NCBI RefSeq assembly: GCF_000002425.4 | Contig: NC_037270.1 | Span: forward strand, 8,259,892 to 8,323,891 | Origin: Physcomitrium patens | Taxonomy: Eukaryota > Streptophyta > Bryopsida > Funariales > Funariaceae | Length of the DNA stretch: 64,000 nt | Reading direction: 5' to 3' | In this document: positions 1 through 63,304 of the stretch, piece after piece | Layout of the letters: each line of letters begins with the position of its first letter | How positions within the stretch are numbered: position 1 is the first letter of the stretch | Program-made: the position numbers and the translations under genes | The notes under the pieces: generated by a model | Databases searched by the model: none | What the model saw: only the letters and a program-made list of their open reading frames with translations | Told to the model about the DNA's origin: nothing

Positions 1-663
1 CAAGAATTATAAATCTAACTTCAATAAATTTGTTAAGATTATGAAAAAAAATATAATCTTAAACAAGAGTTGACTTCTTGTAGAAATCCTCAAAACTTTG
101 ATTTTCTTCCATTAAACTTCTTTAGTATATTATTGTTATTATTATTATTTTCATATTTGAAGTATTAAGGCTTTTTGGATGTACTTGTAAAGTTGATATA
201 CTTGTTTTTCTTAATTGCACAACTTCTTGGCATAGACATTAGTCCTTAATATTCAATTCTTTTGTAGACATATGAATAGTATTTCTATGGTTGATATTTA
301 TAATATGTGAAATTTTTGCTTTAAGAGTATTGAAAAACTTATAAAGATTTGTAATAGTTGCAAATCTATTTTCATTTCTATAAAGTGAAGAATCCATAAT
401 TTTATTTTCTTCTATTTTTTAAATAGACAACTTTAATAATTCTATAACTTAATTTAGAGAAAAATAATTTATTATCAATAATATTCAATAAAAATTTCTA
501 AAAAGAAATATAATTCAATTTAAAGAAAGATTTAATATTATTAAATAAAATATTAGTTTGAAGGTGGAAGATTTGAAACTTTTAAAATATAATAATAATA
601 AGTATAATAATTTATTTATTTTTAAAATAAATCAAGTATAGAAAATTAATAATCTTATCAAAC
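1..663. other. AT-rich intergenic DNA, no gene
   Basis: Very AT-rich, with short A/T runs and no coding-like stretch. I see nothing recognisable before the LTR that begins near 664. Confidence 0.6.
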
Positions 664-1878
664 TATCAAGCATATGAATTTAAAAATCACCAAAGAATTA
701 ATATTTTTTTTATTAATAAAAATATTTTATTATTTATTCAAAAATAATTATAATATTGAAACTATAATGGCTATTTTAAAAAAAATAAGATTAAAGATTC
801 TTGAAACAAGGCAAAAAATAAGAAAGACATTGACAAGAGTAAGAAAGACTTTATTATTGCCTTTACATATACTATCTAAATAAGGAGCTAAATAGGGATA
901 TTTTGTAGGTCATCTAAGACGTTGTTATGTTGCAACATGGCTAATAGGTGAGAGAAAAAATAAAATATTAAATTATAAAATATCTTATTTTAAAATATAA
1001 TAAAAATTTACTTTATAATTTTAAATAATTGTCAACAAGGTAGTCAAAATAATAAATACTAAAATTGTTTTTTTTTATAAAATAAGCTTCTATTTATGTT
1101 GTAGGATCATAAATAAGACAAAAAAAATAGATTAGAAAAAATAGTATTATGATCACCTTAAGATAAAAGTAAATAGTTGCTTCAAGCAAGCATTACCTAA
1201 AAAATTAGATTTTAATATTTGAAGAGGCACAAAATTATATACCTTTAATATTTTTAGAATTTTTTTATTGCTTAAAAAATATTATTTTAGAATAAACTAG
1301 TAAAATCTTCTTTGAGCATTGAATTTTCTTAAAATTTCTATTTTAAATATTTTTTATGATATTTTAATTATCCTTTAATTTTTTTTAGAATTTCTTTGTT
1401 ATTTTTTTATAAATTATTCAATGATTTTTTTTAAAGATTTTTTAAGGATTATTTAAGATTAAATTATTATTATTATTATTAAGATTTAATTAAAGTTTTT
1501 TTAAATTTTTTTATTAAGATTGCTAGGTTCTTTAAATGTTGTAAATATAGTTTTACATAACACAATAACATGTCTAATTTGTAAGCCAAGTTTTCAACAT
1601 GTGCACTATATAGCAAACTTATATTGCAAGTGACAAACATGTACAACATGTATTCAACTTGCAATATAAGTGGTCGACATGTGTGATACATAATTGACTT
1701 GTTGTCATAGATTTTAACCTACCAAATATGTAAAAACATCTATAAAGTTAAATCTGCATTTATAAAGCTTCTAAGAAGATTTGTCACAAGTAAATATATA
1801 ATTTATTTATGTTTAGTTATTTCTTCTTAACTCTTCTTATCTTAGTAGTTATTAGTGTCATTACATATGACCATGATA
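664..1878 (-). mobile_element. Family-A solo LTR, split by an AT-rich insert
   Basis: The left part (664 to about 930) matches the start of the intact A1 LTR: TATCAAGCATATGAAT for TGTCAAGGA..., the TTGACAAGAGT motif near 831, and ACTATCTAAATAAGGAGCTA for the segment after the TATA box. The right part (about 1540-1878) matches the second half of the A1 LTR: TTGTAAGCCAAGTTTTC, the paired CAAG motifs, and an end of TGATA for TGACA. Between them lie about 600 bp of unrelated AT-rich DNA. No convincing 5-bp duplication is visible at the outer ends. Strand follows family-A coding orientation. The 70-codon open frame across it is not a gene. Confidence 0.75.
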
Positions 1879-2612
1879 TTGAAAGTAATTCCAAGTCAAA
1901 AATTTAATTGTTATGATAAAAAGATATATCTTTCATAATATTTTTTTATGAGGAAATATTTACTTAAGCTAATTAATCGAAAAAAGAAAAAAAAATCTTT
2001 TTTTTATAATTTTTAAAGATATGTATTAATTTTTTTAATTTTTAATATTTAAAATCTTAAAATATCTTAAAATTTAGTAATTATATTAAAATATTTATTT
2101 AAGATATTTACTAAATTTTATATTGATGAAAATTTTGTCTCTTTTTAAAAAATTATATTATATAAATTCCAACGATCAAATGATGTAAATGTGATAGTTA
2201 TTATTCATAAAAAAATATTATTTAAAAAAAATTATATCTTAAAATTAGATAATGGTTAATAAAAGATAATTATTTCTATTATTAGAAATATATTTTGGTC
2301 TTTTTATTCACATTCTTAATTTTTTTTAATTTGATATGGAAGTAAATCAAATTATTCTTTTGAAAGAAAAACTATTTTTAATTATATATTATTAAATTAA
2401 TTAATTAATAAATTAATATAAATATAAGTTTAAATATTTTTTTATTAAAATAAAACATTTATACATAATTATATACAAGTAAGAATTATTAATAATACAT
2501 GAACATACACTATAAGATTATCATTACATTTTTTTTTATTACAAATTTAATCTTTTAAAATAAAAAGCCATTATAAATTTATTACTTCATATAAGATCAA
2601 ACATTAAATGCA

Positions 2613-2615
<3 letters not shown>

Positions 2616-2678
<63 letters not shown>
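2616..2678. repeat. (TA)n microsatellite
   Basis: Uninterrupted TA dinucleotides over about 60 bp. Confidence 0.95.
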
Positions 2679-2680
<2 letters not shown>

Positions 2681-3499
2681 AAAAATTCTCATAAGTATCT
2701 AAAAATTTATAATTTATAATTTTTTTAAAAAATTAAGTAATCAAATTTATATATTAATTCAAAAACTCAATACTTAAAAAAATTACATTAATTTATGTCT
2801 AATAACATTGCTTTGTATTTAAAAAAAATATTTTATTAATTTTAGATATGTACCTATATTCAAATTTGATGATTTTTTGTAGTTTTTTAATTAATAAATT
2901 ACTAAAAAGAATAAAAAATTTGATATTTTAATTTAAATTAAAAATAATGTTAAATCCATAATTTTTTTTAAAAAAATTTTAAAAAATAATTATATAAAAT
3001 TATATACATGATTTTGAAGAAAAATAAAATTCAAATTTTTAATACAAGTAAGTAAATAAGAAAAATTTTATTCTCTTGCATTTTGAAAGCCATTGATACT
3101 AGAATAAATTAAAATTCAAATAATTGAAAATATCCTATGAAACAATTTAACAAATTTCAAGGCATATATCATTTGTTTTGCTCAAGGTTTAGAAGACTTA
3201 AAAAAAAATCATTTTGATTCTTTAGGAATCATATGCAATATAGCATCCACTAACATAAGAAAATCCATACAAGAAACTCTATTCTTCATGAAAGTAGCAA
3301 TAATACTACTTATTATAGATCCTATTGTACTTTTTAGCCATACAATCACATCTATTTGATCCAACTAAAACATAATATTAGAACTATATAATACTGAGAA
3401 ATTCACAACATTTTATTTCTTATATTATAATGAGGATAAGAATGAGCACTTGAATCTTCATTTTGTTATGTTGTGATTTGGCTATCATGTTAAAATAAA

Positions 3500-3527
<28 letters not shown>
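3500..3527. repeat. (TA)n microsatellite
   Basis: Short uninterrupted TA tract. Confidence 0.9.
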
Positions 3528-3531
<4 letters not shown>

Positions 3532-3799
3532 CACAATTTACATACAATATAGTAAATGCCACATTATTAGATTTTAGTTGATTACAAAATGTGATTTGAT
3601 TGCTACTTTAAAGTAATTAGTCTAAAAAGGCTACTATCAAAGTTGATTTTTATATTGATAATAATTTTATATATTTAGAGCTACCATTACTAGATATTCG
3701 TGACTCTTAAAATATTATTTTATTTCTTTTATATGATATTTAGGACACATATTATGTGAAACTTATTAAAAAAAAGAAATAGAGAAGGATTTTTATGTA

Positions 3800-4326
3800 A
3801 TAAAATATAATTAGGCCATCTATATGGATGAATAGAGATAGATGATAAAAATCTTCATTTTTATTAGCCAAAAATCATGCACAATCAACTTCCAGGAAAC
3901 TACTTAAGGCCTTATTAAGAGTTAGGGTTATTTTTTTGAGAAGTATCAAACATCAAAGGTCAAGATCATTAAGTTTAGGATTTTGGATATAATTTTGTTA
4001 TAAATTTTGTATGATTTGAAATTTTTGTAAAAGAGATATAGGTACTCAAAATCAAGGTATTGATTTTGTACCTACTATCACTCTTTGGAGTATAGTGCAA
4101 GCATATAAAGAGCTTTTAAAGATTGAATTATGTAATTGAAAAGTTGGTTTAACAGGTTTTATTTTTTATACAAAAAAATGGATTAAGAGTTGATTTAGAG
4201 GAGTAATGACTTCTTGAAGAAAGCGCTTCTAAATTGAGATTTGTCAATGAATTAATTTCATGAAGGATTCAATTTTAGCCATATCGCAAGCATTTGGACA
4301 AATCTTTGGATTAAATTTTAAAAAAA

Positions 4327-6210: not shown

Positions 6211-6725
6211 TGTCATATTAAAAAGTAGTATAATATGTAAAAATAATATAAAATATTATATAAATTTTGATTTGAGATTTTGAGAAGTTATCTTTTTTTT
6301 TTATAAGCTTTTCAAAAAGCTTTCATTGACATTAAGATAAGTTACTATGAATCAACAATGCCTTTTTGGATAAAAAAAGAACCAACCACTCTTCAGGATT
6401 TTTCTTTGGAGGTTTTTTGAAAGTGTATTCTGAATTTAAGTTTAATATTTTAAAGAGTTATTCTTTTTTTTTATAAGCTTTTTAAAAAGCTTTTACTTGC
6501 TTTGAGAAGAGTTATTATAAACCATCGATGACTTTTTAAAAAGAAAGAACTATCTATTCTTTAGGATTTTTCTTTGGAATTTTTCTCAAAGAATACTTTG
6601 AATTTGAGTTTGAGATTTTGAAGAGTTATTATTTTCTTTATAAGCTTTCCAAAAAGCTCTTATTTGCTTTTAAAAGAGTTTATATGAATCAAGGATTTTT
6701 TTTTTTGAATACTTTGATGAAGATA
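6211..6725 (+). repeat. Element C 5' LTR with three ~168-bp tandem units
   Basis: After a short unique start shared with 36271-36310 (ATAATATGTAAAAATAATATAAAAT), the sequence is three imperfect direct repeats of about 168 bp. Each holds GAGATTTTGA, a run of T, ATAAGCTTTTCAAAAAGCTTT, a TTTTTGGATAAAAAA-like segment and AGGATTTTTCTTTGGAGG. Similar units recur five times in the 3' LTR. The downstream end is unclear because gag-like sequence begins within about 50 bp. Confidence 0.7.
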
Positions 6726-6749: not shown

Positions 6750-8450
6750 TTTTTGATTGGATGGAACAACAACTAAGTAAACATATGGGACTAAATTAGC
6801 TACTACAAGAGTTTTAAAAGAAGTTTGGACAACTCCCATTATTTGAGAAGCACGTTATAGAGGTGAAGAAATTAGAGTTATTTTTATAAGTTACAGATGA
6901 GGCATTAGAAGATATATTGCTTTTCTTTCTTCAAGATGTGATGTAAAAATATAATTTTATTACCAATTGAAGAAGGTTGGAGGAAGCGATGAGCCATATT
7001 TTTAAGTAATATAATGTAAAGGCTGGAAGATTAGAGAAAAGAATGGAAACAACATCAATGATAGTTATGAAGGTTCTTCCAATAACTTTGCTTGCTTCTA
7101 ATCCATAGAGCTCTTCAAAGAAAAAGATTATAGATAAAGACACCATTGAGAAATTAATGAAGAGTATGAAAGAATTGAAGGTAGAAATTAATGTTTTAAA
7201 GAAAAATACAAGGTTAGACACTTTACAACCGACTAAAAGATCAAAGGGGTTTGTAGTGAGATGCATTTGGTATAATGATCCAAATCACAAATGTGCTGAG
7301 TATGGATCATATGAAGATGCCATGAAGAGGGGTATTATTACATTCAAAGAAGGCAAAATTAGAAATACTGCAATAGATGAGCTTTTAGAGACTAACTTTG
7401 ATAGAGGTGGCATTAATAAATTCATAGCAGATAGATTAGAAAGAATAGTTCTTCATGTAGTAAGGATATAAAAAATTTTACCATTAAGATTAAATACAAT
7501 AAGGTAGAAACCTCTAGACATGTATCAAGAAAAGTGATAGTGAAAGAAGTACAAGTGATCAAAAGATTAATTGGGTAGAAAAATTTAATTGATGTAAATA
7601 CCATTTGGACCTATTTGATAAGTGAGTATAATAAAAAAGAACCTTATGATGTATCAATAGAAATTAAGAGTACCATGACTAGTAAAAAAAAGAGGTAAAA
7701 GAATCAATTAACAAAAAAGAGATCTCAAGTAGTAAAAAGACTACTCAAAGAAATGGATCAAGAAGCAATAAAAGACAAAAAGTACAACCTTTTTCTTCAT
7801 ATTTATGAGCTAATATTCCACTTTCAAATGATAAGTAGGAATAAAAGATGAAAAAATTCAAGGATAAGAAAAAATAAGATAATACCAACAGAAAGGATAA
7901 GGCACTAGCTTATAAATTCTAATTTGGTATTGAATCTCTAATTGATATGAAAGGTATTTCGAAAAAGAAGATTTTAGATTCCAAGATTGAATTTATTTTA
8001 AAAAATCACTTGATATTGTTAAAAATGTTTTTTTATGAGTTCATCATCAGTGAAATTAAGAAAGAGATGCAAATAATAGTCAAAATAGTGATGGTAAGGC
8101 ATTAAATACTCTAATGATCAATGAAGAAGAAGATAAGATTTGAGAAGTATTTGCCTTGAAATGTGATAATATGGGCACTGGTGACTAAAAGAAAAAACAT
8201 AGAATCATTTTTTAATAAGATTCAAAATACAAAAGTTATATTAATGGAAGAAGTTTTGTCTAACGAAATAGAGGATGAAATATTACAAATATTTTTATGT
8301 GATGGAATAGCAAGTATTAAAGTGGAAGAAAATACTAGCAAGAATTAAGAAGAAAGAATGGTAATAGAGATGAAGATATAATAATATGGAATTAACAAGC
8401 TATGGAAGTGTGATGGTGAAGTTTTGACAATTTATACTCATTCATTTTGG
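6750..8450 (+). pseudogene. Element C gag remnant
   Basis: Decayed gag of the Tcn1-like element. The longest open part (7157-7471, 104 codons) contains a degenerate CCHC zinc knuckle: Cys-X2-Tyr-X4-His-X4-Tyr, in which two cysteines read Tyr, explained by TGT-to-TAT changes. It is followed by a charged segment with ITFKEGKIRN and LLETNF. A second open part at 8163-8348 probably belongs to the gag-protease linker. Several stops and frame changes lie between. Assignment rests on position, the knuckle and my recognition of this clade's gag style. Confidence 0.65.
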
Positions 8451-8806
8451 ACAAGAGCTACTATAAAGATACATATAAAAATTGAAGACCTTGAAGAGGT
8501 AATCTTAGCATTGGTAGATCATGGCTCTAAGATCAATATCTTATCTAAAAATATTTATGAAAAAGACAAATGACTAATTTATATCAAGCATGGATGGGTA
8601 TTGAGAGCTACCAATAATAAAAGATGTATTCTTTATATAATATGTTCAGCATTGGATATTAAAATTAGTGATGTAGAGGTGGAACAAAACTTCTTTATGT
8701 AAAATTAAGGAAGTTATTCAATCATTTAAAGGCAACCATATATCACCGTAATAAGAATAGAGACGAAGATATTAAATGATGGCTCACACTATGCTAAGAT
8801 ATATAG
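8450..8806 (+). pseudogene. Element C retropepsin remnant, left part
   Basis: The frame reads a retropepsin-like segment with the catalytic-type motif LVDHGSKINILS near 8510-8550, followed by about 90 residues with several stops. It has Asp-His-Gly-Ser where most retropepsins have Asp-Ser/Thr-Gly. The coding sense stops at 8806, where A1 was inserted, and continues at 15180. Confidence 0.65.
8802..8806. repeat. A1 target-site duplication, left (TATAG)
   Basis: TATAG directly before the LTR start TGTCAAGG; an identical TATAG follows the element at 15180-15184. Confidence 0.95.
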
Positions 8807-9358
8807 TGTCAAGGACAAAGACTCGATGAGGAAAAATATACACCAAAAGGCTATCTCGATATAATAAGTCAAAATATAAACAAGTAGGTATATTAAAAGG
8901 AAATTGGAATGGCTATTGCCACAAGACAAGAAACTAAAGACTCTTGAACCTGGACTAGAAGCAAGAAAGGAGTTGGCAAGAGTGAAGAAGCCTTCACTCT
9001 TGTCTCTATATATACTATCTAACTAGGGGCTACGTGGCGACGTTCTATAGGACCTCCAATATGTGTTGACTTTGTAAGACACATGCCTTGACTTACAAAG
9101 CAAGTTTTTCTACGTGTGGGCCACATAGTTAGCTTGATCTTCAAGCTAACAACATGTGTGGCACATGGCCAACTTATTGACCACGTTTCTAATCCAAAAA
9201 GTCAATTAAAGACACCTATGAAGTCAAAGCAGCGTCTAGGAAGTTTCTAGGAAGCTTCTATATTAAATATTATACAATTAACTTACTTTTATCTACTTTT
9301 ACTTACTTCTACCTATTTCTATATGTAATTATTAGCTTACATGATTATGGCCGTGACA
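8807..9358 (-). repeat. A1 3' LTR (552 bp)
   Basis: Starts TGTCAAGGAC and ends GCCGTGACA on the + strand. It is 547/552 identical to 14628-15179. It contains the TATA tract TATATATA at 9007-9014 and the dyad at 8977-9002. Confidence 0.97.
8977..9002. repeat. 11-bp perfect dyad at the predicted transcription start
   Basis: CAAGAGTGAAG (8977-8987) and CTTCACTCTTG (8992-9002) are exact reverse complements with a 4-bp centre. The same dyad is at 14798-14823 in the 5' LTR. It lies between the TATA box and the predicted RNA start, so one arm is probably untranscribed. In A4 and A3 both arms remain recognisable. Confidence 0.9.
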
Positions 9359-9372
9359 TTACCCCCCCTTCT
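9359..9372 (-). promoter_or_regulatory. A1 polypurine tract
   Basis: In element sense, AGAAGGGGGGGTAA directly abuts the 3' LTR; on the + strand it reads as seven C followed by TTCT. This is the position and composition expected for the plus-strand DNA primer. A2 has AGAATGGCGGATAA at the matching place (30816-30829) and A4 a similar purine run beside 40400. Confidence 0.9.
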
Positions 9373-9399
9373 AGAGACGAGTTCCACGAGGAGCGGTCA

Positions 9400-9822
9400 T
9401 CATATGTTGAGGAAATCTATGATGCGACGAATTGTATTCGCTACATACTCTGATCTCTGTTCTCTTCGAAGATGATTGATAGGGCCTTTCAACCATTGGT
9501 AGTGTCCCATACCAGGGCGGGAAGACCACCCAGTTATTTGATCATTATTGAGGCCTTCATAACTTCCTTCGAATAGAATATTCGGAACACCATCAGGAGT
9601 TGTTCCTACCTCTAGCAAAATCACCAAACATCGGGAGTCCCTTTCCAAATCGTAATACCAAACGCGTTGTATCTCACCATCTGTTCGAGGAAAAACATGT
9701 CGTTCTTGAAGATCTTCATCTCGATTGCGTCGTCTTGAAGGTTGTGACAATCGTAATGTCTCGTCCGGCAGGTCAGCAAACGAAGGTTCTTGAGTTGAAT
9801 CTGCTGGTTGTTGGCTCTCCAT
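9400..9822 (-). CDS. A1 ORF3, 140-residue protein of unknown function
   Basis: An open frame in pol orientation but another frame, starting 94 bp after the pol stop and ending 27 bp before the polypurine tract. The N-terminal half is polar, rich in Gln, Arg, Asp and Glu. The C-terminal half holds several Trp residues and the segment EGSYEGLNNDQITGWSS, then a basic stretch and a hydrophobic tail ending DFLNI. No signal peptide, membrane segment, coiled coil or zinc motif is visible, so it does not look like an envelope protein. The A2 counterpart (30387-30788) reads in one frame with clear similarity and the same ends. I do not recognise the family. It could act in integration, RNA handling or silencing escape, but nothing in the sequence decides this. 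Confidence 0.8.
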   Translation of the reverse strand: MESQQPADSTQEPSFADLPDETLRLSQPSRRRNRDEDLQERHVFPRTDGEIQRVWYYDLERDSRCLVILLEVGTTPDGVPNILFEGSYEGLNNDQITGWSSRPGMGHYQWLKGPINHLRREQRSEYVANTIRRIIDFLNI

Positions 9823-9916
9823 CTAATTAGCGTCACAAATGCAAAGAAGTTACAAACAAAGATAGGAAATTGAATGTTATCTTGCCTCAATCTTGTCTCT
9901 TTTATAAGAGAGATTT

Positions 9917-12900
9917 TTATCTTGGTTTTGATGGATGTCGTTGATGAAAAACTTTGACTTTAGTTGATGTATTTGTTAGATTCCTGGATGGCTCCCATGT
10001 GCGTTCACTAATATCATATCCACGCCAATGAACAAGATATTCCAGCTTATTTCGGCGCCGCCTTGAGTCTAATATCTCTTCCACCTCAAATTCTTCATTA
10101 TTATCTACTTCTATAGGAGGCGGTGGCATTTGTCTTCTTCCTTGTATATCCACTGTCTTATATGGTTCAAGAAGAGATACGTGGAATACAGGATGGATCT
10201 TCATTGACTCCGGTAGATGTAACCGATATGCAACTGGGTTGATCTGTTCAGAAACAGAAAAGGGGCCAAGCCTACGATAGTCCAACTTGTCACAAGGTCG
10301 AGTAGTCTTGATATTGCGACGAAGTAGCTATACCTTATCACCCACGTTGATTTGTGGTTGCTCCTTACGATATAGATCTGCGTTTATCTTTTGTCGTTCT
10401 TGAGCTTCCTTCAATTGTGTCTTCATTATTGCATGTAACTCTGACAACCGATTTGCCATATCTTCTGTTGCAGGATTATCAACTTTTGAAAAATCAAAAG
10501 TATCAAGTCGTGGATGATAGCCATAATTGGCAAAGAAAGGTGTTTGTTGCGTGGAAGAATGTATCGTATTATTATAAGCAAACTCTGCCAATGGCAGAAG
10601 GGTTGTCCAATCATCTTGTTGGTAGTTGATAGTACACCTTAAATATTGCTCCAAGACTTGGTTTACGCGCTCTGTTTGTCCATCAGTTTGAGGATGGAAA
10701 GCCGAAGATAGCTTTATGTCCACTTTTAAAATCTTGAAAAGGATCCTCCAAAATCTTGACACAAATTGAGTTCCCCTATCCGATATGATATCTTTAGGTA
10801 ATCCATGATAGCGATAGATATTATCAATGAAAAGCTTAGCTGTTTCTTCACCTGTGATAGATTTTGTACATGGCACAAAATGTGCCATCTTGGTGAAACG
10901 ATCTACTATCACAAATATAGAATCATAAGATCTTGAGCTTGGAAGATCTGTGATGAAATCCATAGAAACAGAAGACCATGGTTGTTCTGGTATATTTAAT
11001 GGCTGAAGAAGTCCGTAAGGTCGATGACGAGGAATTTTTGATCTTGAACAAATATCACATGATTGTACAAAGTCTTTGACTGACTTCCACATTTGTGGCC
11101 ACCAAAAATCTCTTGATATGAGTTCCAAAGTCTTATTATATCCAAAGTGCCCTGCTGCTGGAAAGTCATGACGTGCTTGAAGAACACGTAAACGTGCTTC
11201 TCCTTCTGGAACATATAGGCGTCCTTCAAAATATAATAGATTATTCTTGAACTCAAACTTAGAAGGATCATGAGACTTGGAAGAATTATTCTCGATATCA
11301 TAAACAAGAGGGTCTGAGGACATATTGGACTGGATTTGCTTGAGAAAAGTTGAATCAACAGTCAATGTTGATTTCATTGCTTGGAGATGAAATTGCTCCG
11401 GTTTGAAGAGGACCGTTCCTTGTTGCTCAAAAGCTGCATCTCTTTCTTTTGGTGCAAAATAAGAACGTCTAGATAGGGCATCGGATAAACCTTGTTGTTT
11501 TCCTGGCCGATAAGTGATAATGAACTCGAATCTTGACAAAGACATACTCCAACGAGCTTGACGACGATTCAACACGCGTACTGACATGAAATACTCGAGG
11601 TTCTTGTGATCTGTATACACAGTGACTGGACTAGAAGCGCCTTCTAGATAATGACGCCATTCTTGAAAGGAATCCACGATCGCAAGAAGTTCTTTATCGT
11701 GGATCTCATAATTGATCTCGGCTGCTGAGAATTTTCTTGAATGAAAAGCTATCGGATGGAGTTTGTCATCTATTCCCATTTGTGATAAAACTGCACCCAA
11801 GGCAAAATCTGATGCATCTATTTCCATAAAAAATGCCTTGGAAAAGTCAACACGATATAAGACTGGTGCAGAGACAAACGATGTCTTCAAGGCTTCAAAT
11901 GCTGCTTCCGCTTCTTGATTCCAATGAAATTTATCTTTACTAGTCAAGCGTGTAAGTGGAGCTGCAACTCGTGAGAAATCTTTGATGAAGATCCGATAGT
12001 AATTGGCAAATCCCAAGAAACATTGAACATCTCTTACTGTCCTTGGAATCTTCCAATCCACGATTGTTTGGACTTTCTTAGAATCCATCATGAGACCATC
12101 ATTTGAAATGATGTATCCTAAAAAGTCAACTTGAGTAGTGTGAAATACATACTTTTCCATCTTGGCGTACAATCCTGCATCTCTAAGTTTTTGTAATACT
12201 TGACGAACATGTATTTCATGTTCTTCGACGTTCTTGGAATAGATCAGGATATCGTCTAGATAGCAGACGACAAAATTGTCTAAGAATTCACGAAATACAT
12301 CATTCATGAGATGTTGAAAAGCAGCTGGTGCATTCGTGAGTCCAAAGGGCATGACATTATATTCGAAATGTCCATACCTGGTTCGAAACGCAGTCTTCCA
12401 TTCATCTCCTTCTTTGATCCGTACTAGATTATATGCTCCTCTTAGATCTATTTTTGTATAGATCTTAGCTTGATTCAACTGGTCAAGGAGTCTTGATATC
12501 AAAGGTAATGGATACCTGTTCTTGATTGTGATCTTGTTGAGTCCTCGATAATCAACACACATTCGTAAAGATCCATCTTTTTTCTTTACGAATAGAATTG
12601 GAGCTCCTGCTGGAGATTTTGAATGGCGTATGAAATTCTTCGCTAAATTCTCGTCAATATATGTCTTGAGTTCAGCCATCTCATCTTGCGATAAACTGTA
12701 AATTGGTCCAAATGGTGGCTGAGTTCCTTCCTTGAGGTCGATTGAACAATCATATGGACGATGCTCCGGAAGAATATCTGCATTCTTTTTCTCAAAAACG
12801 TCTTGATACTCCTGATATTGACTTGGAATGCCACTTGAAGTCTTTACGTTTTTAGAAATAGGTGCAGCATAAATAGCAAAAGTTGATCCTTCTTTTGCTG

Positions 12901-13474
12901 CGTGTATAAATGCTTTTGCACCTATCAGTACGGGTTTTACTGTACTAGACTTATAATTTTTTACTTGGTTCGTAGAACTATTAATAATGCTTTTGGAAAA
13001 GTCAAGTTTACGCGAATTTCAATCTATTCGAGGGTTATATTTTTCTAGCCAAGATAAACCTAAAATAACTGGATTGGACGGGGATTTAATTATGTTAAAA
13101 GCTATGTAGCTATCATAACCGTCTATTGTTACTTTTATAGGATGAGTTTCATGAGTGACATCTCCAGAAGACAAGGGACGACCATCTATGACTTCTACAT
13201 GTACTGGTTTAGGTTTCTGTACATAGGGTATTTTACGACTTTTAACAAATTGTTCATCTAAAAAACATGCTGAGGCTCCCGAATCTAATAAAGCAGAGGC
13301 TTTGTAATTCTTAGGTCCTAAATATAAGTCTATTATAAAACAAGGAGAGGGTTCTGAGGAGAGGATAGGACCTTCATTAGGAATTGTACAAGGTTCCAGC
13401 TGCACGGTCCCTATTGTAGCTGGACGAATCCGTTTTCTGACATGTTGTCTTCTTTGACCGTCGTACCCCTCATT
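9917..13474 (-). pseudogene. A1 pol: PR-RT-RNase H-IN-chromodomain, two nonsense codons
   Basis: One frame, open from 13474 to 9917 except for TGA at 13019-13021 and TAG near 10328. Both stand where A2 has Trp, so both are private TGG-to-stop changes of the G-to-A type. Domains in order: retropepsin with DSGA at 13274-13285; RT with [10 protein letters not shown] and YLDD at 12253-12264; RNase H with YTDHKNL; integrase with an HHCC zinc finger (HDFPAAGH to CDICSRSK), catalytic MDFI, SDRGTQF and Glu in DGQTERVNQ; and a C-terminal chromodomain (about 9935-10098, EFEVEEIL to TWEPSRNL). Pol overlaps gag by about 64 nt in the -1 frame. Without the two stops the polyprotein would be of usual length for chromoviruses. 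Confidence 0.95.
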
Positions 13475-14415
13475 TTATAGTTGCGTCGTTTCTTTGGACA
13501 ATGTTGAGCAGTGTGCTTAGCTTCTCCGCAATATAAACATAATCCTTCTTGACGACGACGAATCTTTTCTTGCTCAGTTAGAGGTTTAAAACGTACCACG
13601 TCAATTTGCATGTCTTCTACTTCCGAATGTACGTTTGGCAAAGATGTTGATGTTGCCATTGAGTAATAACGTTGAGGTTCTCGTGAATGATTCTCAGATC
13701 GAAATTCAAAAAGTCGATTATCACATTTTACCGCAAAATCGATTGCTTGACTCAAAGTTTGAGGATCAAGTAAGTTGAGCATCAATTTCTTTACTTCGTA
13801 TTGCAATCCATAAAGAAATTGACTGATGAGTGCAGCATCATCCCACTTGATGTCAATTGCAAGTTGTCGAAATTGTGAAGCATATACTGTTACTGAGCGA
13901 TTTCCTTGTCGCAGAATTTGGATCTTATTTGTTGCAACACGAGTTGCATCGTGTTCACCATACATAGATCGAAACTCCGCCAAAAAAGCTTCCAAATTGT
14001 CCAATATTGGATTTCGTTGTTCAAGAAAAGACGAAAACCACGATAATGCAGAACCAGAAAGTAGAGTGCCAATAAACCTGACTTGTGATCCTGGAGTTGG
14101 ATAGCTTTGCGGTTGAAGTTCAATTGCCAATTGTACTTGATTGATGAACCCTCGAAACTTTGATCTCGTACCATCAAATTTCTCGGGTAAGGCAATTCTT
14201 GGTTCTCTAGTGCTTATAGGGTGTTGTACAATTGGAGAAGGAACGTGATTTGTTGTAGATGTTGAAGCAGCTCCGATCATCTCTATATCTCCACTTTCTG
14301 CTATTCTTGTTCTTTCCTGTGTTGGTGAATTGAGTTGATGCATCGCAAGCATTAACTCCCTCATTTGCTCTTGCATTTGTGCCATTGCACTCTTCATTTC
14401 AACAAGCTCTGCCAT
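13411..14415 (-). CDS. A1 gag, about 334 residues
   Basis: Capsid/nucleocapsid precursor. I chose the ATG at 14413-14415 (MAELVEMK) because the following glutamine/methionine-rich helix resembles a gag start. An in-frame ATG at 14454 would add 13 hydrophobic residues. The capsid-like core contains ALPEKFDGTRSKFRGF and a SALSWFSS-type motif. One CCHC zinc knuckle (CLYC, His, Cys; 13498-13539) lies near the C-terminus. The stop TAG is at 13411-13413 in the context CTACAATAGGG, which is kept in A2 and recognisable in A3 and A4. No internal stop is present. Confidence 0.93.
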   Translation of the reverse strand: MAELVEMKSAMAQMQEQMRELMLAMHQLNSPTQERTRIAESGDIEMIGAASTSTTNHVPSPIVQHPISTREPRIALPEKFDGTRSKFRGFINQVQLAIELQPQSYPTPGSQVRFIGTLLSGSALSWFSSFLEQRNPILDNLEAFLAEFRSMYGEHDATRVATNKIQILRQGNRSVTVYASQFRQLAIDIKWDDAALISQFLYGLQYEVKKLMLNLLDPQTLSQAIDFAVKCDNRLFEFRSENHSREPQRYYSMATSTSLPNVHSEVEDMQIDVVRFKPLTEQEKIRRRQEGLCLYCGEAKHTAQHCPKKRRNYKMRGTTVKEDNMSENGFVQLQ

Positions 14416-14614
14416 AATGACACTAAGAAGAAAAATTTGTTTGATATTGCTCAAGACAAAAGAAAAGAAAGACTTGATAACAAAGAAGATACTAAGAACA
14501 ATATCAGTTTAGAAGTGGGTAATCCGCAAACTTCTAATACGCTTATGTCTTGTCAAGAGAAAGGGGTAATCCACTCTTACTCAAGAAAAAACAAAGCTCT
14601 GATATTGTAAGTGT

Positions 14615-14625
14615 ACTCTTGTCAA
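14615..14625 (-). promoter_or_regulatory. A1 primer-binding site, self-priming type
   Basis: In element sense TTGACAAGAGT starts 2 nt after the 5' LTR end. It is exactly complementary (11/11) to ACTCTTGTCAA in the 5' LTR (element sense; + strand 14794-14804), which begins 31 nt downstream of the TATA box. This is the arrangement by which the Tf1 retrotransposon primes its own reverse transcription with the RNA 5' end. A2 has the same 11-mer at the same 2-nt offset (25518-25528). No TGG-type tRNA-complementary sequence occurs at this place. Confidence 0.75.
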
Positions 14626-14627
14626 TC

Positions 14628-15179
14628 TGTCAAGGACAAAGACTCGATGAGGAAAAATATACACCAAAAGGCTATCTCGATATAATAAGTCAAAATATAA
14701 ACAAGTAGGTATATTAAAAGGAAACTGGAATGGCTATTGCCACAAGACAAGAAACTAAAGACTCTTGAACCTGGACTAGAAGCAAGAAAGGAGTTGACAA
14801 GAGTGAAGAAGCCTTCACTCTTGTCTCTATATATACTATCTAACTAGGGGCTACGTGGCGACGTTCTATAGGACCTCCAATATGTGTTGACTTTGTAAGA
14901 CACATGCCTTGACTTACAAGGCAAGTTTTTCTACCTGTGGGCCACATAGTTAGCTTGATCTTCAAGCTAACAACATGTGTGGCACATGGCCAACTTGTTG
15001 ACCACGTTTCTAATCCAAAAAGTCAATTAAAGACACCTATGAAGTCAAAGCAGCGTCTAGGAAGTTTCTAGGAAGCTTCTATATTAAATATTATACAATT
15101 AACTTACTTTTATCTACTTTTACTTACTTCTACCTATTTCTATATGTAATTATTAGCTTACATGATTATGGCCGTGACA
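14628..15179 (-). repeat. A1 5' LTR (552 bp)
   Basis: Partner of 8807-9358 and the transcribing LTR of A1. It holds the TATA box (14828-14835), the predicted RNA start, the self-complementary 11-mer (14794-14804) and the dyad (14798-14823). Confidence 0.97.
14804..14835 (-). promoter_or_regulatory. A1 core promoter: TATA box and predicted RNA start
   Basis: In element sense TATATATA (14835-14828) is followed 31 nt after its first base by a C-A step with A at 14804, a standard pyrimidine-purine initiation context at the usual plant distance. RNA starting there would begin ACTCTTGTCAA. A2 keeps the same 31-nt spacing (25308 to 25339). The start is predicted, not observed. Confidence 0.65.
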
Positions 15180-15184
15180 TATAG
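15180..15184. repeat. A1 target-site duplication, right (TATAG)
   Basis: Identical to 8802-8806; the element C protease sense resumes here. Confidence 0.95.
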
Positions 15185-24966: not shown

Positions 24967-25515
24967 TGTCACGGACATATATATTTACCTCAATAGTTAC
25001 TTATATGATTAAGTAGAAGTAGATAAAATAGAATAATTTCATAAAGTCTTCTAGAAAAGCTTCTTAGAAGCTTCATAGATGCGGTTTTGACTTCAAATGT
25101 GTTTGTAGGTTAGAAACTTGGCCAAAAGGCTAACCATGTATTGGTAGCTTGTGGAACAAGTTACCTCCGTATAATAGCTTGTGGAACAAGCCAACTATGT
25201 GGCACATACATAGATAACTTGCCTAGCAAGATAAGACATATGACTAGTAAAGTCAACACATGTTGGACATCCTATAGGACATCACCACGTGGCTCTTAGT
25301 TAGATAGTATATATGGAGGCAAGAGTGAAGCCTTCTTAATTCTTGTTAATGTCTTTCTAGTCTTAGTCTTGTTTTTAGACTTTCTAGTCTTCTTTTTTTT
25401 TGGCAATAGTCATTCTAGTTAATATTAGATCATCTTTTGAGTGACTTTCTAGTTCTTTTTAGTGATAGAAGAGTGTATTGAGGATTCCTTTCTTTTGAGA
25501 TTCATGTCCTTGACA
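24967..25515 (+). repeat. A2 5' LTR (549 bp)
   Basis: TGTCACGGAC to GTCCTTGACA. TATATAT lies at 25308-25314, and the equivalent of the predicted RNA start lies at 25339, again 31 nt downstream. The RNA-start 11-mer has decayed to ATTCTTGTTAA (two C-to-T). Confidence 0.93.
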
Positions 25516-25517: not shown

Positions 25518-25528
25518 TTGACAAGAGT
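25518..25528 (+). promoter_or_regulatory. A2 primer-binding site, self-priming type
   Basis: TTGACAAGAGT, 2 nt after the LTR end, identical in sequence and offset to the A1 site. Confidence 0.7.
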
Positions 25529-30386: not shown

Positions 30387-30788
30387 ATGGAGTACTAACA
30401 ACCAACAGATTCAACTCAAGAGTTTTTATTTGCGGACTTACTAGATGAAACATTGTAATTGTCACAATCTTCAAGAGAACAGAATCGAGATGAAGATCTT
30501 CAAGAATGACATGTCTTTTCTTGAATAGATGACGAGATACAATATGTTTGGTATCACGATGTTGGAAGAAAATCCCGATGTTTAGTGATTTTATTAGAGG
30601 TAGAAACTACTCCTGACGGTGTTCTAAATGTTTTATTTGAAGGAAGTTATGAAGGCCTTAACAATGACCAAATAATAAGGTGGTCTTCTTGCCTTGATAT
30701 AAAATACTATAGATGGTTGAGAGGACGTATCAACCATCTTTGAAGAGAGAATATAATTTACTACATCTTCGACTTTCTCAACATATGA
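30387..30788 (+). pseudogene. A2 ORF3 remnant
   Basis: From ATG at 30387 to TGA at 30786, 134 codons in a single frame collinear with A1 ORF3, with a small deletion near the C-terminus. Shared words include DSTQE, RDEDLQE, CLVILLEV, TPDGV, LFEGSYEGLNNDQI and DFLNI. Five internal stops occur at the TAA/TGA positions of otherwise matching sequence. Frame conservation without reading-frame loss argues that ORF3 was a real gene of the family. Confidence 0.85.
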
Positions 30789-36270: not shown

Positions 36271-37175
36271 TGTACTAGAAAGTGAGATAATATGTAAAAA
36301 TAATATAAAATAATATATAAATTTGGATTTGAAATTTTGAGAATTTATTCCTTTATTTATTAGATTTCTAAAAATCTTTCACGAGCTTTAAGAGGAATTA
36401 TTATGAAATAAAAATATCTTTTTGGATAAAAAAAAATTAACTATTCTTTAGGATTTTTTAGGAGAATTTTTTAGAGTGTATTTTGAATTTAGATTTGAAA
36501 TTTTGAAGAGTTTTTTTTCTACTTATAAGTTTTTTAGAAAGCTATCACTTATTTTGAGAAGTGTTAGTATGAACTAACAATTTTTTTTTGGATAAAAGAA
36601 GAACTTGCCACTCTTAAAGATTTTTCTTTTGAGGTTTTTTTAAATTATATTTTGAATTTAGGTTTGATATTTTTAAAAGTTTTTCTTTTCTTTATAAGCT
36701 TTTTAAAAAGCTTTTACTTACTTTAAAGGAGTTGCTATAAAGCATTGATATTTTTTTAAAAGAAAGAACCAATTATTCTTAAAGATTTTGCTTTGGAGGT
36801 TTTTCACAATGTATTTTGAATTTGGATTTGAAAATTTGAAGGATTTTTCTTTTCTTTATAAGCTTTTTAGAAATCTCTTACTTGCTCTAAGAAGATTTAG
36901 TATGAATTAGCGGTATCTTTTTGGATAATAAAAGTGCCAACTACTCTTTAAGTTTGTTTTTTTTTTTTGGAGGTTTTTTTTATAGTGTGTTTAGAATTTG
37001 GTTTTAAGATTTTGAAAAGTTGTTCTTCTTTTTTTAAGCTTTTCAAAAAGTTCTTATTTACTTAAAGAGTAGATTGTATAAAGTTGTGGTGCTTTCTTTT
37101 TATGATAAAGAGGAACTATTTGCTTTGAATTAATATGATCCATGGCTTTGCTTGCTCATAAAGTATGTTATAGAG
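36271..37175 (+). repeat. Element C 3' LTR with five ~170-bp tandem units
   Basis: Starts TGTACTAGAAAGTGAG, then ATAATATGTAAAAATAATATAAAAT as at 6230. Five imperfect units follow, with ATAAGCTTTTTAGAAAG-like cores near 36353, 36524, 36692, 36857 and 37034, compared with three in the 5' LTR. The right end is uncertain; CATAAAGTATGTTATA near 37160-37175 also occurs upstream of the 5' LTR. Confidence 0.65.
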
Positions 37176-39860: not shown

Positions 39861-40400
39861 TGTCAAAGATATAAACTCTAAAGAACTAAAATATCAATAC
39901 ATTCTTGTATCACTCAAAAAGACTAAAAATAACTCAAAGAAGGAGAGATAATAATATAGTATTAAATTGGAATGACTACTATCAAAGACAAGAAGACTAA
40001 AAAGTCTTGAAATAAGACTAAAGTCTAAAAAGACATTGACAAGAGTAAAGAAGGCTTTACTCTTGCTTCTATATATACTCTTAACTAGAAGTTATATAAG
40101 GATGTTTTATATGACCTCCAAAATATGTTGACTTTGCAAGATATGTATTTTAACCTGCAAAGCAAGTATTCTATATGTACGCCATATAATTAGCTTGTTT
40201 TGTAAGCTATCAACACAAGGTTAATTTGTTGACCAAGTTTCTAACCTATTAATGTACTAAAAATATATATAAAGTTAAAACAATATCTACTAAGTTTCTT
40301 GAAAGTTTTTTTTATAAAATATTATCAAATAAATTTATATTTATATATTTTTATATAATCATATAGATAAATATAAGAATAAATATATAAATATAATTCA
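39861..40400 (-). repeat. A4 3' LTR (540 bp)
   Basis: TGTCAAAGATATAAAC to ATATAATTCA. It keeps TTGACAAGAGT, the 11-mer complementary to the primer-site partner, and a dyad in which both arms changed in step (AAGAGTAAAG/CTTTACTCTT). Confidence 0.85.
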
Positions 40401-40429: not shown

Positions 40430-40870
40430 AAAGAATGGTCATCATATGTTGAAAAAATCCAAGATGTGGCAAATTATATTTATTACATACTCTAATCTTT
40501 GTTCTCTTCAAAGATAATTGAGAAGTCTTTTCAACCATTGATAGTATCTCATACTAAGGTAGTAAGACCATCCTACTATTTAATCATTAATGAGGCCTTT
40601 GTAACTTTTTTCAAATAAAATATTTGAAATACTATCAAGAATTGTTCCTACCTCTAATAAAATTATCCAATATCAAGAGTCTCTTCCAAGATCATAATAC
40701 CAAACACGTTGTATCTTGCCATCTATTAAAAAAAAAGACATGTCATTCTTGAGAATCTTCATTTTGACTACGTCATCTTGAAAGTTGTGACAATCACAAT
40801 GTCTCATCTAATAAGTCAATAAATAATAGCTTTTGAATTAAATTTGCTAATTCTTGGTTTTTTGTCTCTT
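40430..40870 (-). pseudogene. A4 ORF3 remnant
   Basis: Collinear at the DNA level with A1 9400-9822 (GGTCATCATATGTTGA, TTTCAACCATTG, CCTACCTCTA, ATACCAAACACGTTGTATCTTGCC). Too many changes to read as protein, but it confirms that ORF3 belongs to the family. Confidence 0.75.
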
Positions 40871-55959: not shown

Positions 55960-56330
55960 ACTTTAAGCCAAAACTAATTGAATCTTAAATCCGAATAAAA
56001 TCCTAAACCCTAAATCAAACCCTAAACAAACCTTAAATCAAATCTCAACCAAATCCTAAACCAAATCCTAACCAAATCCTAAACCAAACCCTAATCCTAA
56101 ATCAAACCCTAACCAAACTCTAAATCAAACCCTAAATCCTTAACCAAATCCTAAATCAAACCCTAAATCCTTAACCAAATCCTAATCAAATCCTAAATCC
56201 TAAATAAATCCTAAATCCCAAACCCTAAATTCTAAATTAAATCCTAATTTAAACCCTAAACCCTAAACCCTAAATAAATCCTAAACTCCAAATCCTAAAC
56301 CAAATCCTAGTAATTCCTATAATAGATTTA
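55960..56330. repeat. Degenerate CCTAAA telomere-like tract
   Basis: About 350 bp of ACCCTAAA, ATCCTAAA and ATCAAACCCTAAAC words in one orientation. The plant telomere unit CCCTAAA occurs exactly several times, including three in a row near 56257-56274. Degeneracy and the flanking repeats place it inside the chromosome, not at an end. Confidence 0.8.
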
Positions 56331-59400: not shown

Positions 59401-60140
59401 TGGATTTTTTAATAGTTAAATAATAGATATTCATATATATTGTGCTTATATTTAAGCATACAATTAGATTGATATTAGTGGTCTATTATTTTGATTCATA
59501 TATTTATTTAATTATTAGAAAAAAATTAACTATTAGATTAATAACCAAGAAGATTGGTAGTGAGGATTTAAATAATGATAGGATAGACTACATGTGGTGG
59601 ATTTTTATTTTTGAGTCTTTTTAGTGATATTTTTAAAGATTAGAATAAGGATAAGATAAACCACAAGTGATAGATGTTAATCTTAGAGACATCTTAATGA
59701 CATTTCTAAAGTATCAAGGTGACTTAAAGAAGTAAGAAGAAGTACATAAGGTATAATTATTATTGTTGTATCTTTTATTTTGATTAATACAGAGGAAAAA
59801 TTTAGATCTTAGTTTTTAGACTATTATGCATGATTGGAATAGTATCTTGGTATAAGATTGTAACGACATATTTTGGATGAAATAAATACCTTGTTTGAAA
59901 AATTTGAGGGCTTGTTTTATACTAAAGAAAGAAAAATAGAGTATTGAAATGAAAGAGGTCCTAAAAATAAAGAAACTATGTGATCTAATTTTAAAAGCTT
60001 AATTCTTGATAACTATTGTAACTATTAAAATAAGATTTAATAGATAGATTTTTAAATGACTTATCTTAAATATAATTAAATCTTAGATGCATAGTAAAAA
60101 GCAAGCTTAAGGCATATAAAGATTCATCATAACACGAAGC
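59401..60140. other. AT-rich DNA, probably decayed transposon sequence
   Basis: No motif can be read with confidence. The 60-codon frame at 59442-59624 has AT-driven composition. Confidence 0.4.
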
Positions 60141-60149
60141 CTTGTATTT

Positions 60150-60680
<531 letters not shown>

Positions 60681-61369
60681 GTACTTAAAATCACAATATA
60701 TATTGAATAGTATAAAAATTCTTAGACAAATAAAGAATTAAAATGTTAGTTGTAGAAATAGAGTCTTAATAAGTCTTGGAGAAAACTATATAAATTTATT
60801 TAATATTTTTACTTATTATTGAGTATTAAGAATTATTTATTAAGAATAATATTTAAATTGGCTTTCTATGTATATGTATTACTTATAAAAAACTATAAAT
60901 TTTATTTAGTAGTTAAAAGAAGTATGAGAAAAAAATTCATGTCTTTTTAGTTATTTATATATAAAGTAGGATTTTTAGTGGATTTAAATTTATTTTAATA
61001 CTATAAAAAATTATCAAGATAGAAAATTATATACTTGAATTGATATTAGCATTATAAAACCATCATAGAAATTATTAGAATTTATTTAGAATTTATTTAT
61101 AAATTTTAGAGTAATTTTTAAGACTTTGATAAAAATAAGTTTTATTACTTTGGAAGGCATTATAAAAAAAATGGAGCAAGATTTGAAGGCCACATAAGGT
61201 TTTGAAGCTAATTAGATGTTTTTGAATACTATGGTGAAATAAAAAATGAAAAATATTAAATCTATTATTAGAATATAGGAGATCCTATATCTAATTTAGT
61301 CCTTATAAGAAAGGATATGCACAAATTTTATACGGGTTGTAGCACTTTGAAGGTAGTTAAGAAGATAAG

Positions 61370-61850
61370 ACTAAAGCCTTGTGGCCTCTCTTAGATACCC
61401 ATATACACTACATGTAAGCCTTAGTGAGGCTTAAATCCTTGATCTATATGCAAGATATTCTTGAGATAAAATATTTTTACTTAATTTTTTATTTATATAC
61501 TTTTTATTTTCAAATCTTCATAACTTATATATAATAACTAAAATTTATATGTCTCTTGTACCATTAGAAAAATAAAAATTTATATTATAAAATATATATT
61601 TTTTTTTTTCTTTTTATATTTTATTAGATAAAAATTGATTGAATAAAAGATGAGCAAGTTTTGAATTTAATAATTCCTTGATTTCATTAATTTCATTTGT
61701 TTTATGTTTGGTTGTTTTTTATTATTTTTATTTGCTTCTTTCACTTCACACCACCAATTACAAGCAATTCTTAATTGAAGCCATCTTGTAATTTGGATTG
61801 AGGGGTGAAATTTACCTTCACATTTTGGTGCATCTATTAGAAGCTAGTAC
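61370..61850 (+). repeat. Right arm of a large inverted repeat
   Basis: Partner of 60150-60680, with about 690 bp between the arms. It ends TTTACCTTCACA followed by TTTTGGTGC, which resembles an LTR end next to a primer site. The two arms may thus be LTRs of one family in opposite orientation. Confidence 0.7.
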
Positions 61851-61959
61851 TTCTAATTGTATGTATGAATGTGAAGTTAGTTATTTGTGATTGACTTTTT
61901 CTATGGACTTTTTAAGGGAGCCTTATAAATACATTTTCTATCATTAGTAAGTCTTCTAT

Positions 61960-61987
61960 CTATTATTATTATTATTATTATTATTAT
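61960..61987. repeat. (ATT)n microsatellite
   Basis: Uninterrupted ATT units. Confidence 0.9.
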
Positions 61988-62379
61988 AAAAATATATCTT
62001 TTAATTCATAGTCAAAAGATTTTTATTTTATTTTTTAAAAAAATAATGATTAAAAATAGAGTATATTGCTATTAGATTTTTATCAATCAGTTTTTATTTA
62101 TTTATTATTTAAATTTGAAACTTTTTCAGATTTTGTATCTTGATGTAAGCTTTCTAAAAGCTATCACACTGGAATTGGATAGAATTTAAATTTTTAGTGA
62201 AATTTTGATTAAAAAAAAATTCACTACCTTAGCAATTTTTTGTATTCCATGTTTGGAAAGTTATTTTTAGTGCATGTTGACTATTTAAAATTTAATTACT
62301 TTGGATTAAAATAATTTGAACAAAAAATAAAATTTTCATTGAAATTGCATTAATACTCAATTTTCGGCAATTTTTGGAG

Positions 62380-62587
62380 TGAAAAAGAAGCTTAGAAGTT
62401 CTAAGAATTCATCATCAAGGGTGGAGTTCATCTACAAAGATCCTCACTATTCTTCTTTGTAGTTTTTTTAGTTGAAGGCCTTTCTCTAGTCGTAGAAAGA
62501 TTTAATCACTCCTTCTACCCCTTATATTCTTTCTATTTATAGAAAGAACTTAATAAAAACTTCAAAAAAAAAAAAAAAAAAAAAAAA
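62380..62587 (+). mobile_element. Retroposon-like 3' end with A tail
   Basis: A 24-bp run of A (62564-62587) lies 12 bp after AATAAA (62551). The preceding ~180 bp are more GC-balanced than the surroundings. This is the layout of a reverse-transcribed polyadenylated RNA (LINE, SINE or processed gene copy). The 5' end and target duplication were not found. Confidence 0.4.
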
Positions 62588-63260
62588 TCATTAAATTAAG
62601 GTGAATATTCTTTTCAAAAACATTCACTAGTTTTTAATTTATTTTACTAATACAAATTGTCATATGAAGGAAAGAAACTTAAGAAGAAAGAAGAGTGAAA
62701 TTAATAGCTTGCAAGAAAGTAAATTCCTAAACCCTTGTCAATTATTTCTTTCTTTGAAATTTTAGCAAATTTCTTGAATACAAGGATCTGGAGCTAAGAA
62801 TTGGAGGATAGAATCTAGTAGGAAGATGCAAAAAGCCAATCCTTTGTAAAGAAACCACCTACTCAAATTTTCTATTATATCTTACTAAAATCAATTATTA
62901 AAAAATAAAGTATAATATCTTTACTATAAAATATACCATTTGGTAATAATATCAATTTTCATTCAAATTATGTTTTAAATTTTACATGAATTAAATGGTA
63001 TTGAGATATACAATCAATAAGTTCTAAGTTTCCACTTGCAATACAAAAAAGCTCCATAATTTCATAGATTTGGACTTTGTAACTAAGCACAAAATAAATA
63101 AAAACCATTGATGGATTACTTTAGGAGATTTTTTAAACAATTAACTAGTGGCATATATACATTATTTTAAATGTTGAATTGTTTAATATTTTGCTTGATT
63201 AGATTTAAATAAAAATTAAACATAACTAGGAAAAATTTATTAAAATAAATTTATTGTCAC

Positions 63261-63263
<3 letters not shown>

Positions 63264-63304
<41 letters not shown>

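What the first reader, a model, noticed from the sequence alone, without database searches (positions are those of the whole stretch)
14615..14835. Self-priming (Tf1-type) primer site in a plant chromovirus
Seen: TTGACAAGAGT starts 2 nt inside the A1 5' LTR and is perfectly complementary over 11 nt to the LTR stretch ACTCTTGTCAA, which begins at a C-A step exactly 31 nt after the TATA box. A2 keeps the same 11-mer, the same 2-nt offset and the same 31-nt TATA spacing; the A4 LTR and the LTR at 664-1878 keep TTGACAAGAGT exactly. Known: Tf1 of fission yeast primes reverse transcription by folding the first 11 nt of its RNA onto such a site, while plant Gypsy elements normally use a tRNA. Inference: family A primes itself. 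As far as I know this is not a standard feature of plant chromoviruses.
Basis: partly seen in the sequence, partly recalled or inferred. Interest (0 to 1): 0.93.

Follow-up and report, generated by a model that had tools for sequence, protein, structure and literature searches.

The report
Self-priming site of a moss retrotransposon
A very abundant moss retrotransposon carries an 11-letter site that fits the predicted first 11 letters of its own RNA, so it probably starts copying itself without a tRNA, as yeast Tf1 does; this was already predicted in print for its likely clade.

Summary
A1 is a minus-strand Ty3/gypsy element (LTRs 14628-15179 and 8807-9358, TSD CTATA). Two nt after its 5' LTR lies TTGACAAGAGT (14625-14615), the exact complement of ACTCTTGTCAA (14804-14794), which begins 31 nt after the TATA box. 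No tRNA-type TGG site is present. Across eight LTRs of the window this 11-mer is the best-conserved block outside the TATA box; 1,783 genome copies carry the exact junction 20-mer.

Tf1-type self-priming is the best explanation; the RNA start and primer cleavage are inferred. The novelty claim fails. The element best fits the Tf1/sushi-related Tcn1 clade (no tree built), not a seed-plant clade; the host is very probably Physcomitrium patens, the family probably its RLG1. Neumann et al. 2019 (PMC6317226) already predict self-priming for most Tcn1 elements of mosses and club-mosses.

One result goes against a simple story: variation at one base pair is not compensated. PBS TTGAGAAGAGT occurs 51 times; 0 of 19 scorable copies have the matching R, and 0 of 5 scorable copies with R ACTCTTCTCAA have the matching PBS.

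The parts
8807..15179 (-). A1, full-length Ty3/gypsy chromovirus (TSD CTATA at 8802-8806 and 15180-15184)
   Evidence: LTR pair 99.1% identical, TG..CA ends, 5-bp TSD
14628..15179 (-). 5' LTR of A1
8807..9358 (-). 3' LTR of A1
14828..14835 (-). TATA box (TATATATA), first T 31 nt before the predicted RNA start
14794..14804 (-). R start, ACTCTTGTCAA: predicted first 11 nt of the RNA and self-primer
   Evidence: exact complement of the PBS; rank 7 of 520 LTR windows in conservation, the six better ones overlap the TATA box
14615..14625 (-). primer binding site TTGACAAGAGT, 2 nt (GA, 14626-14627) after the 5' LTR
   Evidence: exact in 92 of the 100 listed of 802 PBS-masked matches
14626..14640 (-). 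U5-end hairpin TTTGTC-CTT-GACAGA abutting the PBS in the predicted fold; possible counterpart of the Tf1 U5 stem
   Evidence: minimum-energy fold of the leader; inferred
14796..14825 (-). inverted repeat GACAAGAGTGAAG-gctt-CTTCACTCTTGTC spanning the U3/R border
   Evidence: sequence; in a conserved block
13411..14454 (-). gag
   Evidence: PF03732, PF19259, PF16297
13019..13474 (-). protease, frame different from gag
   Evidence: PF08284
10328..13018 (-). reverse transcriptase, RNase H, integrase (stops in frame before it, after the protease, and at its end)
   Evidence: PF00078, PF17917, PF17921, PF00665 on 10328-12679
9917..10327 (-). integrase C-terminus (Tf2-1-like SH3) and chromodomain with F/W/Y at the cage positions
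   Evidence: PF24626, PF00385; alignment to CDYL
9362..9372 (-). polypurine tract AGAAGGGGGGG before the 3' LTR
   Evidence: sequence
25518..25528 (+). PBS of A2 (LTR 24967-25515, spacer AT)
25339..25349 (+). R site of A2 5' LTR, ATTCTTGTTAA (9 Watson-Crick plus 2 G-U pairs)
40036..40046 (-). R site in an A4 LTR (ACTCTTGTCAA)
830..840 (-). R site in the LTR near 0.8 kb (ACTCTTGTCAA), with decayed PBS TTGATAAGATT at 651-661

Best explanation
Family A is a Tcn1-like (Tf1/sushi-related) chromovirus of a moss, probably RLG1 of Physcomitrium patens, that starts reverse transcription by self-priming. The RNA starts at A 14804. Its first 11 nt fold back onto the site 2 nt after the 5' LTR, RNase H cuts after nt 11, and the 11-mer primes minus-strand DNA. 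Shown: sites, spacing, conservation, copy number, domains. Inferred: RNA start, cleavage, priming, clade (no tree), family name.
For: Exact 11-nt complement that ends at the predicted start on one side and after nt 11 on the other; 29 of 20,000 LTR shuffles do as well anywhere. TATA-to-R distance is 31 nt in 10 of 10 junctions. R is the best-conserved LTR block outside the TATA box across 8 LTRs (mean pairwise identity 0.873 against 0.646), although A1 and A2 LTRs agree at only 358 of 520 sites. The 190-nt leader folds with the duplex in the minimum-energy structure (z -3.1, 1 of 200 shuffles as good; pair probabilities 0.71-0.98 in a 245-nt leader). 1,783 exact 20-mer junctions in the genome, reversed-pattern control 0; PBS exact in 92 of the 100 listed of 802 PBS-masked matches; R exact in 17 of 20 copies not chosen by R, and 19 of 20 pair at all 11 positions if G-U counts. 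No TGG in the first 36 nt after the LTR. The 4 pol relatives with an organism name among 120 listed are from a frog, a chytrid, an amoeba and a Tremellales yeast. Most Tcn1 elements predicted to self-prime; first 11 nt of Tf1 RNA pair to its PBS, cut between 11 and 12 (PMC7175516, passage).
Against: RNA 5' ends were not mapped. Base pair R7-PBS5 varies without compensation: PBS G5 with R C7 in 0 of 19 (1 more of 20 had no readable junction), and R C7 with PBS G5 in 0 of 5 (9 of 14 had no junction). R7=A goes with PBS5=T in 6 of 12 (14 of 26 had no junction), but C-to-T decay gives both changes too. Within the young A1 subfamily R does not stand out (rank 139 of 394 windows). No tree was built. 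The published RLG1 sequence was not compared.
Confidence: 0.87

Rival explanations
1. The element is primed by tRNA-iMet through a degenerate, displaced site: TATCAGAGC (14604-14596) begins 24 nt after the LTR end of A1 and is 9 nt of the usual iMet site TGGTATCAGAGC (usual site recalled).
For: TATCAGAGC is present in A1, and its first part (ATATCA) in 9 of 10 junctions.
Against: The bases before it are ACA/CAA, not TGG, so the tRNA's CCA end would not pair; A2 and one A1-type copy (ATATGA) lack it; it lies far from the LTR end.
Confidence: 0.04
2. The repeated 11-mer is a promoter or regulatory motif (it also forms an inverted repeat at the U3/R border) and its copy after the LTR is not a primer site.
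For: GACAAGAGT occurs a third time just upstream of R, in a conserved block.
Against: One copy sits exactly at the PBS position, the complement ends exactly at the predicted RNA start, and no TGG-type PBS is present.
Confidence: 0.04
3. Self-priming in trans: the primer is the 5' end of a second, co-packaged RNA, so PBS and R of one copy need not match.
For: PBS variants occur with unchanged R, and matching R variants exist in other copies.
Against: Ordinary mutation after insertion explains unpaired variants too; the genome-wide spectrum at PBS5 could not be obtained (searches not answered).
Confidence: 0.05

Closest known systems
Tcn1-clade chromoviruses of mosses and club-mosses (Neumann et al. 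2019, PMC6317226; passages seen)
   Same: Gypsy pol with chromodomain, probable moss host, no tRNA-type PBS, self-complementary PBS; majority of the clade predicted to self-prime
   Different: The individual elements in its supplement were not seen, so whether this very family is listed there is untested; clade placement here rests on domains and relatives, not on a tree
Tf1/Tf2 of Schizosaccharomyces pombe
   Same: 11-nt self-complementary PBS at the 5' LTR; U5-end hairpin possibly comparable
   Different: Fungal host; here an extra 3' ORF is present; cleavage and RNA start untested here
RLG1 of Physcomitrium patens (PMC7466625; passages seen)
   Same: Chromodomain Gypsy family, most abundant element of that genome (5,092 complete copies, 47.44% of the class I space), phylogeny less congruent with plants
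   Different: Identity inferred from host and copy number, not from its sequence
SM-Tcn1 of Selaginella (PMC2864245; passages seen)
   Same: Tcn1 clade, chromodomain, TG..CA LTRs
   Different: The authors found neither a tRNA site nor evidence of self-priming

Membership tests
Ty3/gypsy chromovirus | protease-RT-RNase H-integrase order with C-terminal chromodomain between LTRs | tested here: met
   (reading frame interrupted by stops)
Tcn1 / Tf1-sushi group | chromodomain with aromatic cage | tested here: met
   F/W/Y at the three positions in the alignment to CDYL chains; first is F where CDYL has Y; cage positions recalled. Not exclusive: Neumann et al. also find it in 59% of Chlamyvir and 56% of Galadriel elements
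Tcn1 / Tf1-sushi group | RT/integrase clusters with fungal, vertebrate and moss Tf1/sushi elements | tested here: inconclusive
   4 named organisms among 120 listed pol relatives: frog, chytrid, amoeba, Tremellales, at 50-59% identity (only the 8,000 candidates sharing most words scored); 2 named gag relatives are a fern; no tree built
Tcn1 / Tf1-sushi group | no tRNA-type PBS, PBS complementary to own LTR | tested here: met
   20 of 20 tRNA genes sampled match at no more than 6 of 11 positions, tRNA-Met not among them
Tf1-type self-priming | complement equals the first 11 nt of the RNA | tested here: inconclusive
   exact 11 nt starting 31 nt after TATA; RNA start not mapped
Tf1-type self-priming | RNase H cut between nt 11 and 12; RNA 11-mer on strong-stop DNA | not testable with these tools
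   needs RNA/cDNA from cells
Tf1-type self-priming | U5 stem-loop next to the PBS | tested here: inconclusive
   predicted 6-bp hairpin at 14640-14626
   0 of 19 and 0 of 5 compensated at R7/PBS5; one copy (L130) has a changed yet fully paired duplex, A7/T5
RLG1 of P. patens | identity to published RLG1 sequence | not tested
   its sequence was not at hand; host and copy number fit

The most novel reading that the evidence does not exclude
The primer site is re-copied from the primer at each round, and the primer comes from the 5' LTR's R (or from a second RNA) while the daughter LTRs inherit R from the 3' end. Unpaired PBS variants recurring in several subfamilies with unchanged R would then be the genomic trace of self-priming, readable from thousands of copies.
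Probability: 0.1. Interest if true: 0.55.

Novelty: already known. Interest (0 to 1): 0.25.

Why it matters
It places an exact self-primer and primer site in what is probably the dominant retrotransposon of a model moss. Published RNA data say that RLG1 is transcribed in protonema (PMC7466625, passages), so the mechanism could be tested in a land plant with ordinary RNA-end mapping. It also corrects the idea that plant chromoviruses as a whole use tRNA primers; the Tcn1 exception is already in print.

Tried and rejected
Rejected: a misplaced LTR end (TSD and LTR pair fix it); a tRNA-iMet site (no TGG; A2 lacks the 9-mer); a seed-plant type of chromovirus (named relatives and chromodomain point to Tf1/sushi, without a tree). 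No result: viral-contig scans with gag and pol found no relatives; a junction pattern there gave 5 records, about what I estimated by chance, not followed. The search with the ORF at 7109-7471 gave 2 unnamed proteins. Within the A1 subfamily R conservation is unremarkable (rank 139 of 394 windows; copies 96.6% alike), so young copies have little power. Asked for and never answered: the genome-wide spectrum at PBS position 5, the total of canonical CTTGACANN-PBS junctions, the count of tRNA-iMet junctions, a chromodomain protein search, and a chlorophyll-binding family search meant as a host test.

Full report
What is there. A1 is a minus-strand Ty3/gypsy element with LTRs at 15179-14628 and 9358-8807, ends TG..CA, and the target duplication CTATA on both sides. 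The 5' LTR ends CTTGACA; then come GA and TTGACAAGAGT (14625-14615). The LTR holds ACTCTTGTCAA at 14804-14794, the exact reverse complement. The next base on either side does not pair, so the complement is exactly 11 nt, starting at the A of a C-A step 31 nt after the first T of TATATATA. Of 20,000 dinucleotide shuffles of a 546-nt stretch of the 552-nt LTR, 29 reached 11 nt or more anywhere in it.

Corrections to the finding. A2 (5' LTR 24967-25515, plus strand) keeps TTGACAAGAGT after a spacer AT, but its R is ATTCTTGTTAA, two C-to-T changes that keep G-U pairs; its 3' LTR has ACTCTTATAAA. The exact hits at 40036-40046 and 830-840 are R sites. The A1 3' LTR differs at one base. So the family-wide statement holds for the site and the spacing, not for every R.

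Conservation. Across eight LTRs of the window (the near-identical A1 3' LTR left out), the 11-nt window at R has mean pairwise identity 0.873 against 0.646 for all windows and ranks 7th of 520; the six above it all overlap the TATA box. A1 and A2 LTRs agree at 358 of 520 sites. In the whole genome the exact 20-mer TTGACAAGAGTACACTTACA occurs 1,783 times (941 + 842), the reversed control 0 times. With the PBS masked, 802 junctions match; of the 100 listed, 92 have the exact PBS and 97 the spacer GA. Of 20 consecutive rows of that list, fetched without regard to R (all 20 have the exact PBS), 17 have the exact R; with G-U counted, 19 of 20 pair at all 11 positions. In 33 junctions picked by a script because a PBS-like site follows an LTR end (8 of them fetched because the PBS was variant), 20 pair perfectly and 30 form at least 9 of the 11 pairs in the predicted fold. 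Within the young A1 subfamily R does not stand out (rank 139 of 394).

Structure. The 190-nt leader folds to -42.0 kcal/mol against -30.75 +/- 3.62 for 200 shuffles (1 as good), with R and PBS paired at its base, and a 6-bp hairpin TTTGTC-CTT-GACAGA abuts the PBS. Tf1 needs an RNA structure like the retroviral U5-IR stem (title of a reference); the likeness here is only predicted.

Clade. Gag, protease, RT, RNase H, integrase, a Tf2-1-like SH3 and a chromodomain are found. The chromodomain aligns to CDYL chains with F, W and Y at the cage positions (positions recalled). The two named gag relatives among 120 listed are from the fern Ceratopteris, 48-49%. Neumann et al. [quoted passage not shown] No tree was built here.

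Host. The window lies in a genome of 470,438,890 bases in 101 contigs; the large contigs seen are 11-30 Mb. Contig C100 is 105,340 bases long, the length I recall for the P. patens mitochondrial genome; I had typed that number, sent in the same turn. I had also typed 122,890, recalled for the plastid; C101 is 112,500, which does not match, and what C101 is was not tested. A library search did not confirm the number. A degenerate AAACCCT array at 55987-56309 is of plant telomere type. In P. patens a single chromodomain Gypsy family, RLG1, has 5,092 complete copies, makes up 47.44% of class I space and is expressed in protonema; its tree is less clearly congruent with the species than those of other families (PMC7466625, passages). 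The copy number seen here fits RLG1; the sequences were not compared.

No tRNA. There is no TGG in the first 36 nt after the LTR. Twenty tRNA genes of the genome (of 63 scored out of 25,691 candidates; Lys, Asp, Asn, Gln, Arg, Ile; one each from C100 and C101) match the site at no more than 6 of 11 positions, and no run longer than 6 nt of the site's complement lies in them. tRNA-Met was not among them. The 9-mer TATCAGAGC, 24 nt after the LTR end of A1, resembles the iMet site, but the bases opposite CCA do not pair and A2 lacks it.

Result against a simple story. PBS TTGAGAAGAGT occurs 51 times after CTTGACANN, with spacers GA, GT, AA, AT and AG, so probably in several subfamilies. Of 20 fetched, 19 had a readable junction; R7 was G in 14 and A in 5, never the matching C. 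R variants at position 7 occur at 2,650 sites (reversed control 1); of the 100 listed, 82 are A, 14 C, 4 T (R occurs twice per full element). Of 14 R7=C sites fetched, 5 had a junction and none had the matching PBS G5. Of 26 R7=A sites fetched, 12 had a junction: PBS5 was T in 6, C in 4, G in 1, A in 1. The A/T coupling may be compensation or shared C-to-T decay. One copy, L130, has a changed but fully paired duplex.

How it most likely works. RNA starts at 14804 (inferred); its first 11 nt pair with the PBS (sequence shown, pairing predicted); RNase H cuts after nt 11 and the 11-mer primes synthesis (inferred from Tf1, PMC7175516 passage). In the usual scheme of LTR elements (recalled) the new PBS is copied partly from the primer and partly from the template, and the daughter LTRs take R from the 3' end; that would let PBS and R of one copy drift apart for a round, which is my proposal for the unpaired variants, untested.

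Known or new. The kind of mechanism and the likely clade are in print, and probably the family. None of the listings and passages that I saw states the site for this family; the supplements of PMC6317226 could not be read. Novikova et al. 2010 found no evidence of self-priming for SM-Tcn1 (passage), so the case here is clearer than theirs, but it supports a published prediction rather than being a discovery.

Noticed in passing
9400-9822 (-), with relatives at 30387-30785 (+) and 40457-40862 (-): A 140-aa extra ORF between chromodomain and 3' LTR, with relatives in A2 (67% aa) and A4 (61% over 93 aa); no Pfam match and no similarity better than E 5 to 242 fetched proteins.
   Followed up: partly
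14796-14825 (-): The U3/R border is a 13-bp inverted repeat, so U3 ends with a second copy of 9 nt of the PBS; in the 3' end of the RNA it could form a hairpin over R.
   Followed up: partly
whole genome, e.g. L034, L037, L074-L093: PBS variant TTGAGAAGAGT (C to G) recurs 51 times with several spacers; no fetched copy has the matching R.
   Followed up: partly
14596-14604 (-): TATCAGAGC, 9 nt of the usual tRNA-iMet site (recalled), 24 nt after the LTR end of A1; its first part is in 9 of 10 junctions, absent in A2.
   Followed up: partly
55987-56309: Degenerate AAACCCT array of plant telomere type inside the chromosome.
   Followed up: no
1-4000 and 60001-64000: Very low GC (18% and 20%) against 35-37% in the two 4-kb blocks that hold most of A1; C-to-T decay of old copies would explain it.
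   Followed up: no
6271-6680 and 36320-37070: Related tandem arrays of a ~166-nt unit at two places.
   Followed up: no
7109-7471 (+): ORF with a possible zinc-knuckle-like stretch (RCIWYNDPNH), 2 unnamed relatives only.
   Followed up: no
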